Below, piece after piece: positions 43,224 through 48,406 of a DNA stretch of 64,000 nucleotides (its first letter is position 1; every line of letters begins with the position of its first letter). The position numbers and the translations under genes are program-made. The notes under the pieces are model-generated. The model was not told where the DNA came from and searched no databases. It worked only from the letters and a program-made list of their open reading frames with translations. This DNA comes from Streptomyces sp. RKAG293. Its GTDB lineage: Bacteria; Actinomycetota; Actinomycetes; Streptomycetales; Streptomycetaceae. The stretch spans positions 8,727,001 through 8,791,000 of the forward strand of contig NZ_JAJOZB010000001.1 of NCBI RefSeq assembly GCF_023701745.1, in the 5' to 3' direction.

Positions 43224-45824
43224 GTGGACCAGTTGATCACCGAAGACCCGACTCATATCGGCCCGTACCGCCTGATAGCCCGCCTGGGGGCGGGCGGGAT
43301 GGGCCTGGTCTACCTGGGCCGCTCGGAGGCCGGACGGACCGTGGCCGTGAAGGTGGTACAGGCCGAGCACGCCCAGCACCCCGAATTCCGCAAGCGGTTC
43401 GCGCGTGAGGTAGCGGCCGCCCGTCGGGTGGGCGGGGCCTGGACGGCGGACGTGCTCGACGCCGATACCGAGGCGGCCGTGCCCTGGGTGGCGACCCAGT
43501 ACATCCCGGGGCCCGACCTGCACACCGTGGTCGCCAAGGACTTCGGACCGCTGCCCGAGCACTCGGTCCGCACCCTCGCCAACCGTCTCGCCCTCGCGCT
43601 GCAGGCTGTCCACGAGGTGGGCCTGATCCACCGCGACCTGAAGCCGTCCAACGTCCTCGTCACCGTCGACGGCCCCCGCGTCATCGACTTCGGCATCGCC
43701 CGGGCGATGGACAGCCTCGCCGGGGACAGCCTGCGCACCCGCACCGGCATGCTGATCGGCTCCCCGGGGTTCATGTCGCCGGAGCAGGTGCGAGGCCTTG
43801 AACTCACCCCCGCCAGCGATGTCTTCTGCCTGGGCGCCGTCCTCGTCTACGCCGCGACCGGGCGCCTCCTCTTCGGCGCCACGGACACCGGTCTCAACGC
43901 CCATCTCTTCCGGATCGCCGAGGAGGAGGCGGACCTGGCCGGCGTACCGGAGACGCTGGTCGATCTCGTACGCGCCTGTCTGCAGAAGAACCCGGCCGAG
44001 CGGCCCGCACTGCAGCAGATCGCCGCGCAGACCGGGGCCGACGGGAACGGCGAATGGCTGCCCGGCCCGGTGCTGGCCCAACTCGGTCGGCACGCCGCCC
44101 AGTTGTTGGACTACGCCCCTGCGACGCGGACCGCTCCACCGGCCCCGGCTCCCCTCGTCCCCGTTCAGCCGCTGCCCCCCATGCCCGTGTACACCCCGAC
44201 GTCCCCGGCGGACTTCCGCCCGGCGCCGGGCTTCGGCCCGCCGCCGGGCCCGTACCCCGGCGCCTGGCCCGCGCCCCCCGTCCCGGCGGACGTCCACGGA
44301 CCGCATCGCCGGCGCTGGTGGGGTCTGGTGGTGATCACGCTGGCGCAGCTGCTGGTGCTGATCAATGCGTCGTATCTGGGCATGATCGGGCCGTCCCTCA
44401 TGGCCGATCTGCAGATCCCCCATGCCGACCTTGGTTCGCTGTACCTTGCCTATCCGCTCGCCTTCGGTGGTCTGCTCTTCCTCGGCGGTCGCCTCGCGGA
44501 TCTCATGGGCCGCAAACGGGCGCTGGTCATCGGTCTGGCCGGCTTCGCGGTGGCCTCCGCGCTCGGCGGCGCGGCCGCGGGCGGCGACATGCTGATCTGG
44601 GCCATGGCGCTGCAGGGTGTCTTCGCCGCGCTGCTGTGGCCGTCGGCGCTGTCCCTGCTGGCCACCTCTTTCGCCGACCCGAAGGAGCGCGGCAGGGCCT
44701 TCGGGGTCTTCGGCGTCATTGCCGGCGGCGGCTCGGCGATCGGCCTGCTCGTGGGCGGCTGGCTGGTCACGAGACTGGACTGGCGCCTCGGCCTGTACAT
44801 CAACGTCCTGATCGCATTGGTCGCCGTGATCGGCGCGGCCACCCTGGTGCACGACCGTCCGGGCCGCACCACGGCGGGCCTGGACGTGCTCGGCGCGGTG
44901 CTCGGCACCGGCGGGTTCTTCGCCCTCACCTTCGGCTTCGACAAGGCGGGGACGTGGGGCTGGACCGACCCCCGGATCGGGGCCCTGCTGGTGGGTGGCG
45001 TCCTGCTGCTCGCGGCCTTCGTGTGGTGGCAGACCCAGGCGTCGAGCCCGTTCCTGCCGCCCTACGTCTTCAGGGACCGGGGCCGCCTCGGCGCCTTCCT
45101 CACGATGGTCCTGGCGGGCATGGGCCTTGTCGCGCTGTTCCTGACCCAGACCTTCTACCTCCAGGATGTCCTCGGCTACGATCCGTTCCGTTCCGGTGTG
45201 GCCTTCCTTCCGACGCTCGGCGCGATGGTCATCGGTTCCACCCAGGTCTCCGCCCGTCTGCTGCACCGCGTCGGCCCCCGCACCTTGATGGTGCCGGGCC
45301 TGGCACTCGTGGCCGTCGGTGTTCTGCTCCTGACGCGCCTCACGCTCGACAGCACCTACACCGCCCAGGTACTGCCGAGCATGCTCCTCAGCGGCCTCGG
45401 AACGGGGATGGCGCTGATGCCGCTCTTCGCCATCGCGACGGCCGGCACCACCCCGCAGGACTCCGGTGTGACCTCGGCAACGGTGAACACCGCCCAGCAG
45501 TTGGGGGGTCTGATCGGAGCGGTGGGGTTCAGCGGCATCCTCGGCTCGGCCATCGTCGCCCGAGTGCGCGATCTGTCCGGGCTTCCGCCAGGCGTTGACG
45601 CGCTTGCCCGGAGCGGGCGCGCCATCAGCCAGCGTGGACTCCCGACGTCGCTGTCGAAGCCGCTCGCCGAAGCGACCATGAGCGGATACATCCACACCCT
45701 CTGGTGGGTGGCCGGCATCCTGCTGCTCGCGGCTCTGGTCGCGGGCCTGATGATCCCGTCCACCGCCCCCGCGACCGGGCCGACACCTCTTTACGGCCAG
45801 GGCGGCCGCCTCGGAGGTTCATGA
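43224..45824 (+). CDS. Ser/Thr protein kinase - MFS transporter fusion, 866 aa
   Basis: One uninterrupted frame joins two complete domains. Residues 14-265 are a Hanks-type kinase of AfsK-like sequence: G-loop GAGGMG (22-27), Lys43, catalytic loop HRDLKPSN with Asp138, DFG 155-157, SPEQ in place of APE. Residues 300-362 are a Pro/Ala-rich linker. From 366 on is a drug:H+ antiporter-like MFS domain of DHA2 (14-helix) type with motif A GGRLADLMGRKRA (421-433) and FVWWQTQASSPFLP later. Start: GTG 43224. The kinase is presumably cytosolic and could phosphorylate its own transporter. Confidence 0.93.
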   Translation: MDQLITEDPTHIGPYRLIARLGAGGMGLVYLGRSEAGRTVAVKVVQAEHAQHPEFRKRFAREVAAARRVGGAWTADVLDADTEAAVPWVATQYIPGPDLHTVVAKDFGPLPEHSVRTLANRLALALQAVHEVGLIHRDLKPSNVLVTVDGPRVIDFGIARAMDSLAGDSLRTRTGMLIGSPGFMSPEQVRGLELTPASDVFCLGAVLVYAATGRLLFGATDTGLNAHLFRIAEEEADLAGVPETLVDLVRACLQKNPAERPALQQIAAQTGADGNGEWLPGPVLAQLGRHAAQLLDYAPATRTAPPAPAPLVPVQPLPPMPVYTPTSPADFRPAPGFGPPPGPYPGAWPAPPVPADVHGPHRRRWWGLVVITLAQLLVLINASYLGMIGPSLMADLQIPHADLGSLYLAYPLAFGGLLFLGGRLADLMGRKRALVIGLAGFAVASALGGAAAGGDMLIWAMALQGVFAALLWPSALSLLATSFADPKERGRAFGVFGVIAGGGSAIGLLVGGWLVTRLDWRLGLYINVLIALVAVIGAATLVHDRPGRTTAGLDVLGAVLGTGGFFALTFGFDKAGTWGWTDPRIGALLVGGVLLLAAFVWWQTQASSPFLPPYVFRDRGRLGAFLTMVLAGMGLVALFLTQTFYLQDVLGYDPFRSGVAFLPTLGAMVIGSTQVSARLLHRVGPRTLMVPGLALVAVGVLLLTRLTLDSTYTAQVLPSMLLSGLGTGMALMPLFAIATAGTTPQDSGVTSATVNTAQQLGGLIGAVGFSGILGSAIVARVRDLSGLPPGVDALARSGRAISQRGLPTSLSKPLAEATMSGYIHTLWWVAGILLLAALVAGLMIPSTAPATGPTPLYGQGGRLGGS

Positions 45825-46197: not shown

Positions 46198-46806
46198 ATG
46201 CCTCGCTTGACCGACGAGCGCCGTGAAGAACGGCGCCGCCACATCCTGACCAGCGCCTGGACCTGTTTCTCCGGGAACGGCTTCCATGCCACGTCGATGG
46301 ACGATGTGATCGCCGCGACCGGCATGTCCTCCAGCGCCGTCTACCGGTATTTCCGGAGCAAGGACGACCTCATCGACGCGGCCGCCGACGAGGCCCTGGC
46401 TCTGGTCCGGAGCCTGTTCGACGGATTGCTGGAGCAGCGGCCCACCGCGTCGCCCGCCGAGGTGGTGGCGGCGATGGTGGGTGAGGTCCGGGACCGTGAC
46501 TCCCGGTCGGAGTACGACCTCACGCGGATCGCCATCCAGTCGTGGGGGGAGGCTTTGCGCAGGCCGGGCATGGAGGAACGCATCCGTGCCTTCTATCTCG
46601 GTGTGCAGAGTCAGCTGGCGGAACTGGCGCTGCGGTGGCGCGAGGAGGGCCACGTCGCGGCGGATGCCGATCCCCGGGGGATCGCCATGGTGCTGATGAC
46701 GCTCATGCCGGGGCTCCTCGTCGGCCGGCACCTGGTGGCACCCGTGTCCGCCGAGCACCTCATCGAGGGGCTGTCGTCCCTCGGTTCGGCGTCCTGGAAC
46801 GCCTGA
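46198..46806 (+). CDS. TetR family transcriptional regulator, 202 aa
   Basis: HTH residues 12-55: RRRHILTSAWTCFSGNGFHA, then SMDDVIAATGMSSSAVYRYF and RSKDDLIDAA. A TetR_C ligand domain follows. Convergent with the FAD monooxygenase gene, with only 109 bp between stops. Sites of similar sequence lie before both genes, so this regulator probably controls itself and the monooxygenase (inference). Confidence 0.9.
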   Translation: MPRLTDERREERRRHILTSAWTCFSGNGFHATSMDDVIAATGMSSSAVYRYFRSKDDLIDAAADEALALVRSLFDGLLEQRPTASPAEVVAAMVGEVRDRDSRSEYDLTRIAIQSWGEALRRPGMEERIRAFYLGVQSQLAELALRWREEGHVAADADPRGIAMVLMTLMPGLLVGRHLVAPVSAEHLIEGLSSLGSASWNA

Positions 46807-46915: not shown

Positions 46916-48406
46916 TCATCGCGTGGAGTGAAGGGGCAGGTGTTCGGCCAGTTGCCGGAGCACTTCGGCCGGCTCGGCCGGGACTCCGTCTGCGGCCAGG
47001 TAGCCGTCTGGGCGGACCAGCAGGGCGGTGCGCAGTCCGGGCACGTGGCGCACGGCCAGGACGCCCCGCTGCCCGTCGTGCTGTGACGGTTCCGATGGAG
47101 TGGGCTCGCCGCGGGTGGGGAGGGCCAGCGTCCAGCGCAGGCCCGCCTGCGGAACGGTCAGCGGCGAGACCCGGTCTCCGATGCGGGGGAAGCCGTGGTC
47201 GGGCTCCTGGGCGTAGCCGACGTCCAGTTGGGCGAGCTTGCGCGTGAGCCACGCGGTGATGCCCGCAGTGGTCGCGGCGGCGACGAGCAGGTCGTTGCGG
47301 AGCCGGCCCGCAGCCGGGTCGCGCAGGGTGGCCATCCTCGCGAACTGGCTGGTGAAGGCGACCAGTTCGGAGGCGATCGGGTGCCGCTCGCGGTGGTAGC
47401 TGTCCAGCAGTTCGGCGGGGGCGCTGCCGGTGAGGACGGCGTGCAGTTTCCAGGCCAGGTTGCCGGCGTCCTGGATGCCGGTGTTCATGCCTTGGGCGCC
47501 GGCCGGGCTGTGGGTGTGGGCGGCGTCGCCTGCGAGGAAGACCGGCCCGGCCCGGAACCGCTCGGCCACCCGCTCCTGGATGCGGAACATGGAGGCAGCC
47601 ACCACCTCCGCCACCCGGATGCCTCCCCCCACCGGTCCACGTTCGGCCACCAGCCGTTCCAGTTCCCAGGCCGACGGCGCGGCCGACCCCGGAGCGGCGG
47701 GAATCACGATGCGGTGCAGGCCGCCGGCGAGCGGCGAGAGGAGCAGCATGCCCGCGGGGGAGAGGAAGAAGGTGGTGTCGTCCTCCGCGGGGCCGTCGGC
47801 TCCCGCGGTCAGGCGGACGTCGGCGAGGGCGAACAACTGCTCGGGAGCCTCGCCGGGGAAGCCGATTCCGGCGGCTGTACGGACCGCACTGTGCAGCCCG
47901 TCGCAGCCCACGAGGTAGCGCGCGGAGACCGAGCGCAGCAGGCCTTCCGGATCGGCGATCACCGCCGTGATCCCGGGGAAGTCGGGGGTGAAGCCGAGGA
48001 ACCGGTGTCCCCGGTGCAGTTTGCCGCCGAGCTCCCGCAGACGTCGGAGCAGGTGCTCCTCCGTGGTCTGCTGGGACGCGAGCAGGACGTAGGGGTAGGG
48101 CGTGTCCAGGTCGGCGTAGGAAGCGCGCAGCAGGGTCCGCTCCCGGTCGTGGACGCGAAACCCCCGGGCCCGCTCACCCGCCGCCACCAGGTGCTCGGCG
48201 ACGCCGATCCGGTCCAGGTATTCGAGGGAGCGCGGCTGGAGCGCCGCCGCCCTGCTGCCGGTCCGGATGTCGGCGGCCCGGTCGATCAGAAGGTGGTCCA
48301 CGCCCAGCTGCCGAAGGCTCGCGGCCAGGGTCGACCCGGCGGGGCCCCCGCCGACGATCAGGACGTCGGTGTGCGCGGGAAGGGCGGTGGTGGGCGACGT
48401 AGACAT
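46916..48406 (-). CDS. PheA/TfdB-family FAD-dependent monooxygenase, 496 aa
   Basis: FAD-binding VLIVGGGPAGSTLAASLRQL at the N-terminus, the DG motif in VGCDGLHSAVR, and the GD motif in FLAGDAAHTHSPAGAQGMNT followed by GIQDAGNLAWKLHAV. A thioredoxin-like C-terminal domain ends ALLVRPDGYLAADG. This is the layout of aromatic hydroxylases and of rifampicin-type drug-inactivating monooxygenases. Substrate unknown. Two operator-like sites lie 60-130 bp upstream of its ATG. Probably induced by an aromatic compound sensed by the neighbouring TetR. Confidence 0.9.
   Translation of the reverse strand: MSTSPTTALPAHTDVLIVGGGPAGSTLAASLRQLGVDHLLIDRAADIRTGSRAAALQPRSLEYLDRIGVAEHLVAAGERARGFRVHDRERTLLRASYADLDTPYPYVLLASQQTTEEHLLRRLRELGGKLHRGHRFLGFTPDFPGITAVIADPEGLLRSVSARYLVGCDGLHSAVRTAAGIGFPGEAPEQLFALADVRLTAGADGPAEDDTTFFLSPAGMLLLSPLAGGLHRIVIPAAPGSAAPSAWELERLVAERGPVGGGIRVAEVVAASMFRIQERVAERFRAGPVFLAGDAAHTHSPAGAQGMNTGIQDAGNLAWKLHAVLTGSAPAELLDSYHRERHPIASELVAFTSQFARMATLRDPAAGRLRNDLLVAAATTAGITAWLTRKLAQLDVGYAQEPDHGFPRIGDRVSPLTVPQAGLRWTLALPTRGEPTPSEPSQHDGQRGVLAVRHVPGLRTALLVRPDGYLAADGVPAEPAEVLRQLAEHLPLHSTR

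What the first reader, a model, noticed from the sequence alone, without database searches (positions are those of the whole stretch)
43224..45824. Ser/Thr kinase fused in frame to a 14-TM-type MFS transporter
A complete Hanks kinase (G-loop, Lys43, HRD, DFG) is followed by a Pro-rich linker and a complete DHA2-type MFS exporter in one 866-residue frame. In usual streptomycete kinases the catalytic domain is joined to extracellular sensor domains (PASTA, beta-propeller) or solute-binding folds. Here the sensor position is taken by the transporter itself. This could couple substrate transport directly to phosphorylation, either as a self-regulating pump or as a transporter-like receptor (transceptor). 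No separate regulator sits next to it.
Basis: partly seen in the sequence, partly recalled or inferred. Interest (0 to 1): 0.78.

Follow-up and report, generated by a model that had tools for sequence, protein, structure and literature searches.

The report
Kinase fused to a transporter-derived receptor
Some soil bacteria of the Streptomyces family carry a signalling kinase joined to what used to be a drug-export pump; the pump part seems to have been turned into an antenna whose outer face changes very fast while the kinase stays the same.

Summary
The fusion is real: one 866-codon frame with an intact Hanks kinase, a Pro-rich linker and a DHA2-derived MFS domain. It is widespread in its family: 32 of 394 sampled genomes (two copies frame-broken) and one plasmid. 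Each half forms one clade, so a single fusion fits. Nineteen checked kinase positions are invariant in 31 of 31 proteins. The MFS half has changed: the TM1 Asp and TM4 motif-B Arg, which pair in QacA, are kept in 9 and 19 of 33 fused proteins against 39 and 40 of 40 free-standing relatives; the window has Asn and Met. Motif A Asp stays in 33 of 33. Conservation is polarised, cytoplasmic side kept and outer side variable; free-standing relatives show none. Best reading: a transporter recruited as the sensor of a receptor kinase. A self-regulating pump is unlikely for this protein, though 12 of 33 relatives keep a charged pair. A passive anchor is not excluded. Ligand, target and phosphorylation are unknown.

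The parts
43224..45824 (+). fused gene: Hanks Ser/Thr kinase - Pro-rich linker - DHA2-derived MFS domain (866 aa)
   Evidence: orthologue in S. fildesensis
43266..44027 (+). kinase domain, residues 15-268 (Pkinase)
   Evidence: 19 checked positions (catalytic motifs and activation loop) invariant in 31 of 31 unbroken fused proteins
43287..43304 (+). glycine-rich loop, residues 22-27
   Evidence: Gly 22, 24, 27 in 31 of 31
43629..43637 (+). HRD motif, residues 136-138
   Evidence: 31 of 31
43686..43694 (+). DFG motif, residues 155-157
   Evidence: 31 of 31
43737..43745 (+). activation-loop T172 and T174 (candidate autophosphorylation sites)
   Evidence: Thr at both in 31 of 31; the role is inferred
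44055..44114 (+). conserved juxta-kinase segment WLPG...LLDY, residues 278-297
   Evidence: mean pairwise identity 0.83 over residues 277-299, against 0.45 in the linker
44121..44297 (+). Pro-rich linker, residues 300-358
   Evidence: mean pairwise identity 0.45
44190..44201 (+). YTPT linker motif, residues 323-326 (candidate phospho- or docking site)
   Evidence: Y.PT in 26 of 31 fused proteins; [YF].PT in 2 of 23 paralogous kinases and 1 of 2 sister kinases; no chance control for a Pro/Thr-rich linker was run
44328..45755 (+). MFS-derived membrane domain, residues 369-844
   Evidence: Pfam MFS_1 at 372-766; helix limits set by me from hydropathy, one helix (653-674) by position; agree with the helices of a low-confidence model
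44364..44366 (+). Asn381 where DHA2 transporters have the TM1 (motif D1) Asp
   Evidence: D in 39 of 40 free-standing, 9 of 33 fused
44487..44519 (+). motif A (GGRLADLMGRK), residues 422-432, retained
   Evidence: D426 in 33 of 33 fused and 40 of 40 free-standing; R430 in 28 of 33 and 37 of 40
44604..44606 (+). Met461 where DHA2 transporters have the TM4 (motif B) Arg
   Evidence: R in 40 of 40 free-standing, 19 of 33 fused

Best explanation
A receptor Ser/Thr kinase whose sensor is a recruited transporter. One ancestral AfsK-like kinase, whose nearest kin have a single TM helix and an extracellular part, gained a DHA2-type MFS domain in that position. The domain keeps its scaffold and the motif A gate but, in this protein, has lost the proton-coupling charges, so it probably no longer pumps. 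Proposed mechanism: an outside ligand or condition shifts the MFS domain between conformations; the conserved cytoplasmic face and juxtamembrane segment pass this to the kinase, which autophosphorylates (activation loop, possibly linker Y.PT) and phosphorylates targets encoded elsewhere. Shown: fusion, pattern of a single origin, conserved kinase, altered coupling residues, polarised conservation. Inferred: ligand binding, conformational coupling, phosphorylation, loss of transport.
For: Single fusion: 32 fused kinases one clade (SH-aLRT 99), 33 fused MFS domains one clade apart from 40 free-standing (100); most small subclades agree; pair identities of the two halves correlate, r 0.76 over 435 pairs. 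Kinase conserved: median pair identity 0.87 against 0.44 for the MFS; 19 checked positions invariant in 31 of 31. Coupling residues, fused against free-standing: D381 9/33 and 39/40, R461 19/33 and 40/40, W405 7/33 and 40/40, N527 3/33 and 38/40; motif A D426 33/33 and 40/40. In QacA the equivalent D34 pairs with R114, and D34 is essential for all substrate types (passages of PMC10425836). No D/E in approximate TM cores: 6 of 29 fused domains of full length (the window among them; one of the six, L137, is from a frame-broken copy), 0 of 40 free-standing. Polarity: fused rho -0.35 (0 of 5000 segment flips as low), free-standing -0.02 (1949 of 5000). Pooled dN/dS over 10 disjoint pairs: kinase 0.14, cytoplasmic side 0.61, outer side 1.02. 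Truncated sister pair L125/L126 keeps a constrained kinase (dN/dS 0.15). 68-258 nonsense changes expected over the fused MFS tree if neutral. No gene shared by the neighbourhoods of five or more of 35 loci.
Against: 12 of 33 fused proteins keep an acidic residue at 381 and a basic one at 461, so part of the family may still be proton-coupled. A protonation site can move: MdfA E26T/D34M, inactive for H+ exchange, works again with an acidic residue elsewhere (passages of PMC7054563). Mean D/E count in helix cores is not lower in fused proteins overall (1.86 against 1.82). Outer-side dN/dS near 1 can mean no constraint rather than diversification; NG86 is crude at high G+C. The polarity is weaker under a circular-shift null (20 of 423 shifts as low), and the fused-minus-free difference is weaker against the 21 closest free-standing relatives (rho -0.20 instead of -0.31). 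Helix limits are approximate, and the AF2 model failed (pLDDT 35). No ligand, target or phosphorylation is shown.
Confidence: 0.55

Rival explanations
1. Self-regulating pump or true transceptor: the MFS domain still exports a compound, and the attached kinase senses or regulates the transport.
For: MFS fold and motif A kept. 12 of 33 fused proteins keep acidic 381 and basic 461. Protonation sites can be relocated in MFS pumps (passages of PMC7054563). Transport and signalling coexist in the SLC5-histidine kinase CbrA (abstract of PMC13022988).
Against: The window has N381 and M461 and no acidic residue in any approximate helix core. Four of 33 fused copies have only about 6-9 helices' worth of MFS domain (L009, L117, L125, L126). 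MFS dN/dS is 0.29-1.17 in 16 fused pairs, against 0.07-0.26 in eight free-standing MFS pairs of one species pair.
Confidence: 0.17
2. Passive anchor: the MFS domain only holds the kinase at the membrane, and its outer half drifts without constraint.
For: Outer-side dN/dS about 1.0; shortened MFS domains are tolerated, including in the sister pair L125/L126.
Against: An anchor does not need a whole MFS domain, yet 27 of 33 fused copies keep an unbroken frame of 790 or more residues with 9-14 hydropathy segments after the kinase; motif A Asp is 33 of 33; conservation is focused on the cytoplasmic side.
Confidence: 0.2
3. A decaying gene: the fusion is no longer functional.
For: 2 of 32 genome copies are frame-broken (L137, L139), and the plasmid copy L009 is cut short, with what looks like a remnant of helix 7 downstream (my reading of the DNA).
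Against: Kinase dN/dS 0.07 between window and S. fildesensis; 19 checked kinase positions invariant in 31 of 31; 68-258 nonsense changes expected over the MFS tree if neutral, while 27 of 33 copies are unbroken and full length.
Confidence: 0.06
4. Assembly or reading-frame artefact joining two genes.
For: GC-rich genomes give long chance frames, as the antisense frame here shows.
Against: The same fusion is in 32 of 394 genomes and, in shortened form, one plasmid record; both halves track each other in trees.
Confidence: 0.01

Closest known systems
Ks-Amt5, ammonium transporter-histidine kinase fusion (PMC5764959: abstract, outline and section 7 read)
   Same: A whole transporter recruited as the sensory module of a kinase in one chain; it binds its ion but does not efficiently translocate it, which is the state proposed here.
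   Different: Amt domain (residues 1-408) followed by a histidine kinase; here a Hanks Ser/Thr kinase comes first and an MFS domain second. Ligand known there, unknown here.
CbrA and other SLC5-STAC histidine kinases (PMC13022988: abstract and outline; others seen in the listing)
   Same: Transporter and kinase in one polypeptide ('transceptor').
   Different: SLC5 domain that transports histidine, STAC linker, two-component signalling; none of these here.
AfsK-type Hanks kinases of Streptomyces
   Same: Closest kinase kin: the NCBIfam AfsK model matches residues 1-310; the nearest paralogues in the genome are 55-60% identical.
   Different: 280 bits against a 1300-bit cut-off; the sensor position holds an MFS domain.
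DHA2 MFS exporters (QacA, EfpA)
   Same: Fold and motif A; EfpA and QacA are the closest solved chains of the MFS part.
   Different: TM1 Asp, motif B Arg and TM2 Trp are lost; below the TIGR00711 cut-off.
Yeast Snf3/Rgt2 glucose sensors and bacterial UhpC (recalled, no call)
   Same: MFS proteins used as receptors.
   Different: Not fused to a kinase domain.

Membership tests
Hanks-type Ser/Thr kinase | G-loop, VAVK Lys, aC Glu, HRD, DFG, SPE | tested here: met
   Pfam Pkinase E 1.1e-37; invariant in 31 of 31 unbroken fused proteins
AfsK equivalog | full-length NCBIfam NF053615 score of at least 1300 bits | tested here: not met
   280.4 bits, residues 1-310 only
DHA2 MFS exporter (TIGR00711) | curated score cut-off 230.2 bits | tested here: not met
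   172 bits; Pfam MFS_1 is met at 152.7 against 33.4
DHA2 MFS exporter | 14 TM helices | tested here: inconclusive
   13 segments by hydropathy, 14 long helices in a low-confidence model
DHA2 MFS exporter | TM1 Asp (motif D1) and TM4 Arg (motif B) | tested here: not met
   Asn381 and Met461 in the window; 39/40 and 40/40 in free-standing relatives
DHA2 MFS exporter | motif A between TM2 and TM3 | tested here: met
   D426, G429, R430 kept
DHA2 MFS exporter | H+-coupled substrate export | not testable with these tools
   needs a transport assay
Transporter-kinase transceptors (Ks-Amt5, CbrA) | transporter fold and kinase in one polypeptide | tested here: met
Transporter-kinase transceptors (Ks-Amt5, CbrA) | histidine kinase output | tested here: not met
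   the kinase is Hanks-type
Transporter-kinase transceptors (Ks-Amt5, CbrA) | ligand-dependent kinase activity | not testable with these tools
   no biochemistry here

The most novel reading that the evidence does not exclude
A so far undescribed family of MFS-fold receptor Ser/Thr kinases in Streptomycetaceae: after one fusion, a proton-driven exporter was converted into a sensor whose outward face diversifies rapidly, as expected if it recognises varied or antagonistic small molecules or attackers, while its cytoplasmic face and the kinase stay fixed.
Probability: 0.4. Interest if true: 0.78.

Novelty: new variant of a known kind. Interest (0 to 1): 0.62.

Why it matters
The transporter-kinase fusions met in the papers here are histidine kinases with Amt or SLC5 domains. 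An MFS pseudo-transporter driving a Hanks kinase would add another major transporter fold to bacterial receptor kinases. It also gives a natural series of about 30 proteins in which coupling residues, helix number and outer surfaces vary while the kinase is nearly constant, so one can ask directly what a transporter must keep to be a receptor. It warns too that a gene of this kind can be labelled 'MFS transporter', as the plasmid record does, although its conserved part is the kinase.

Tried and rejected
Neighbourhood: blastp clustering of flanking frames (130 aa or more, E 1e-30) in 35 loci gave no gene shared by five or more loci. The clusters of four were either the close kin L127/L129/L131/L132 or frames at differing distances in L113, L118, L123, L138, L140 and L142, each with its shadow frame (a first version timed out). 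So no partner could be proposed.

Buried acidic residues as a family-wide marker: the mean count does not differ; only the zero class does.

Taxon spread: in 79 genomes of the class, 5 had a kinase match at E 1e-90, all in the family, and apart from the window's own none above 65% identity; the 74 genomes outside the family had none. A DNA search of 394 class genomes hit 3, all in the family; how many of the 394 lie outside the family is not shown. A fusion of another kinase or another MFS would be missed by these queries.

Rows dropped. L137 and L139 (frame-broken) from dN/dS, pair identity, linker and kinase-residue counts; L139 also from the kinase tree. Their MFS pieces (L137b, L139b) stayed in the MFS alignment, tree, polarity and acidic-residue counts. 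L009 was dropped from polarity and pair-identity counts. L009, L117, L125 and L126 were left out of the acidic-residue count of 29. L141 and L143 were not counted as fused. A free-standing MFS frame next to L142 was left out. L172, an MFS frame at a contig start 46% identical to the window's, may be a further fusion cut by the contig end; not counted. The match table was cut, so 32 of 394 is a lower bound; of the lower-ranked kinase matches I fetched only 12 loci, chosen from the list, all conventional. L140 counts as fused by hydropathy and by its place with L138 and L142 in the MFS tree; blastp with the window's MFS did not find it.
Full report
OBSERVATION. The frame at window:43224-45824 (+) is open for 866 codons. 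Pfam finds Pkinase at 15-268 and MFS_1 at 372-766, both far above their cut-offs. The NCBIfam AfsK model covers residues 1-310 with 280 bits against a cut-off of 1300; the DHA2 model TIGR00711 gives 172 against 230. The closest solved chains are EfpA, then QacA, for the MFS part and PknB/PknA for the kinase. The window lies at 8.73-8.79 Mb of a 9.1-Mb contig. The genome has one full-length match and many separate relatives of each half: best separate MFS 45%, best separate kinase 60% identical.

DISTRIBUTION. A pattern scan of genome contigs gave one orthologue, Streptomyces fildesensis L010, 91% identical over the full length. In the genus, 2 of 35 genomes had a match at E 1e-127: the window's and G025, which by its identical figures is apparently S. 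fildesensis. A DNA search of 394 genomes of the family, followed by reading 33 loci of up to 18 kb, shows the fusion in 32 of 394 genomes (the window's, G025 and 30 more). Two copies are frame-broken (L137, L139). In one (L140) the MFS part is too diverged for blastp but is multi-helical and groups with L138 and L142; Pfam still finds MFS_1 in L142 (E 6.8e-14, four proteins scanned). Two further loci with close kinases (L141, L143; 78%) have one TM segment and an extracellular part. Twelve lower-ranked kinase loci, chosen from the list, hold kinases 62-73% identical with 0-3 hydrophobic segments and no MFS match. A plasmid of Streptomyces sp. NBC_00212 carries a copy that stops after about six helices. 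Outside the family nothing was found: the 74 genomes outside it had no kinase match at E 1e-90; the 3 of 394 with a match are all in the family.

ONE FUSION, TWO SPEEDS. In quick maximum-likelihood trees (SH-aLRT only, no bootstrap, no AU test; the kinase tree carries warnings about long paralogue branches), the 32 fused kinases form one clade (99) next to L141/L143, and the 33 fused MFS domains one clade (100) apart from 40 free-standing DHA2 proteins. Small subclades agree, for example L120/L123/L119, L113/L114/L118/L133, L125/L126, L130/L135 and L138/L140/L142. Deeper placements do not all agree: L125/L126 join L130/L135 in the kinase tree only, and L117 and L009 group with the window in the MFS tree only. 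Median pair identity is 0.87 for the kinase and 0.44 for the MFS, and the two correlate (r 0.76, 435 pairs). For 16 close pairs (not all disjoint) NG86 dN/dS is 0.03-0.50 in the kinase and 0.29-1.17 in the MFS. As a control, eight free-standing MFS pairs between the window genome and G025 give 0.07-0.26 and five kinase pairs 0.06-0.17; the fused MFS of the same two species gives 0.29 (0.32 and 0.36 for its two parts). The control exists for this species pair only, covers loci already fetched, and NG86 is crude at high G+C.

WHAT CHANGED IN THE MFS DOMAIN. In a joint alignment of 33 fused and 40 free-standing domains: TM1 Asp (position 381) 9 of 33 against 39 of 40; TM4 motif-B Arg (461) 19 against 40; TM2 Trp (405) 7 against 40; Asn527 3 against 38; motif C Gly512 18 against 40. 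The window keeps Gly512 and Asn527. Kept in the family: motif A Asp426 33 of 33, Gly465 33 of 33, Gly507 30 of 33, Trp520 30 of the 30 with a letter. The five positions need 4-7 changes each on the tree. In QacA, D34 (TM1) interacts with R114 (TM4, motif B) and Y63, and D34 is essential for all substrate types (passages of PMC10425836). I equate D34 with position 381 and R114 with 461 by motif; the match to EfpA puts N381 opposite the EfpA TM1 Asp. In 12 of 33 fused proteins an acidic 381 and a basic 461 remain, counting Glu, so the family is mixed. A protonation site can also be relocated: in MdfA an E26T/D34M mutant lacking H+ exchange regains it with A150E (passages of PMC7054563). The window has no D/E in any approximate helix core, as have 6 of 29 fused domains (one of the six from a frame-broken copy) against 0 of 40 free-standing; the means are equal (1.86 and 1.82).

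POLARITY. With helices placed by hydropathy and the N-terminus inside, column identity in 32 fused domains (L009 left out) falls from the cytoplasmic to the outer side (rho -0.35; 0 of 5000 random flips of segments as low). The 40 free-standing domains show none (rho -0.02; 1949 of 5000); the difference has rho -0.31 (1 of 5000). Overall conservation is the same in both sets (0.433 and 0.438). A circular-shift null is weaker (20 of 423 as low), and the difference from the 21 closest free-standing relatives has rho -0.20. Pooled over ten disjoint pairs dN/dS is 0.14 in the kinase, 0.61 on the cytoplasmic side, 0.57 in the middle and 1.02 on the outer side. If the MFS domain were neutral, 68-258 nonsense changes would be expected over the fused tree under three mutation biases (23-86 on inner branches). 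Instead 27 of 33 copies have an unbroken frame of 790 or more residues from the kinase start. The exceptions are L009, L117, L125 and L126 (shortened) and L137 and L139 (broken). The sister pair L125/L126 ends near helix 9 in both members and keeps a constrained kinase (dN/dS 0.15).

KINASE AND LINKER. 19 checked kinase positions, T172 and T174 in the activation loop among them, are invariant in 31 of 31 unbroken fused proteins. The juxta-kinase segment WLPG...LLDY has mean identity 0.83, the linker 0.45. In the linker Y.PT occurs in 26 of 31 fused proteins; [YF].PT occurs in 2 of 23 paralogous kinases and 1 of 2 sister kinases. It is a candidate phosphosite or docking site; nothing shows its use, and no chance control for a Pro/Thr-rich linker was run.

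CONTEXT. No gene is shared by the neighbourhoods of five or more of 35 loci. The window and the G025 locus share flanking DNA on both sides, so these two copies are at the same chromosomal place.

MECHANISM AND STANDING. The best reading is a receptor kinase with a transporter-derived sensor. The nearest known case in kind is Ks-Amt5, an Amt-histidine kinase that binds ammonium but does not efficiently translocate it (abstract and section 7 of PMC5764959); CbrA is a histidine-transporting SLC5-histidine kinase (abstract of PMC13022988). A 2005 survey of bacterial Ser/Thr kinase architectures lists solute-binding and 'MalT-like ABC transporter' partners, and the terms MFS, major facilitator and permease do not occur in its main text (PMC1262709, passages). 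None of seven searches of the held library listed a paper on an MFS-Hanks kinase fusion (listings only apart from that survey). The library lacks most subscription papers, and UniRef/InterPro architectures could not be searched. The combination is therefore ranked as a new variant of a known kind, with the passive-anchor and true-pump readings kept open.

Noticed in passing
window:45832-48888: Compared with G025, apparently S. fildesensis (about 830 bases at L144:10470-11300), the window genome has about 3 kb here, holding a TetR-like regulator frame (46198-46806) and a FAD-monooxygenase-like frame (46916-48406); the names are my reading of the sequence, not a family search.
   Followed up: partly
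L144:5520-7798: G025 has about 2.3 kb upstream of the fusion where the window has about 240 bases.
   Followed up: no
L125, L126: Two sister fused proteins end near the ninth helix and keep both coupling charges; part of an MFS domain with a conserved kinase looks stable in this lineage.
   Followed up: partly
L138, L140, L142: A subclade whose MFS domain has diverged so far that blastp with the window's MFS misses L140; MFS dN/dS is 1.14 and 1.17 in the two pairs computed.
   Followed up: partly
L141, L143: The closest unfused kinases carry one TM segment and an extracellular part with two similar GSW-containing stretches, perhaps the ancestral layout.
   Followed up: no
L009:8001-9689: The plasmid copy in Streptomyces sp. 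NBC_00212 is annotated 'MFS transporter' although its intact part is the kinase.
   Followed up: yes
window:43116-45695 (-): An 859-aa antisense open frame shadows nearly the whole gene; it looks like a G+C artefact.
   Followed up: no
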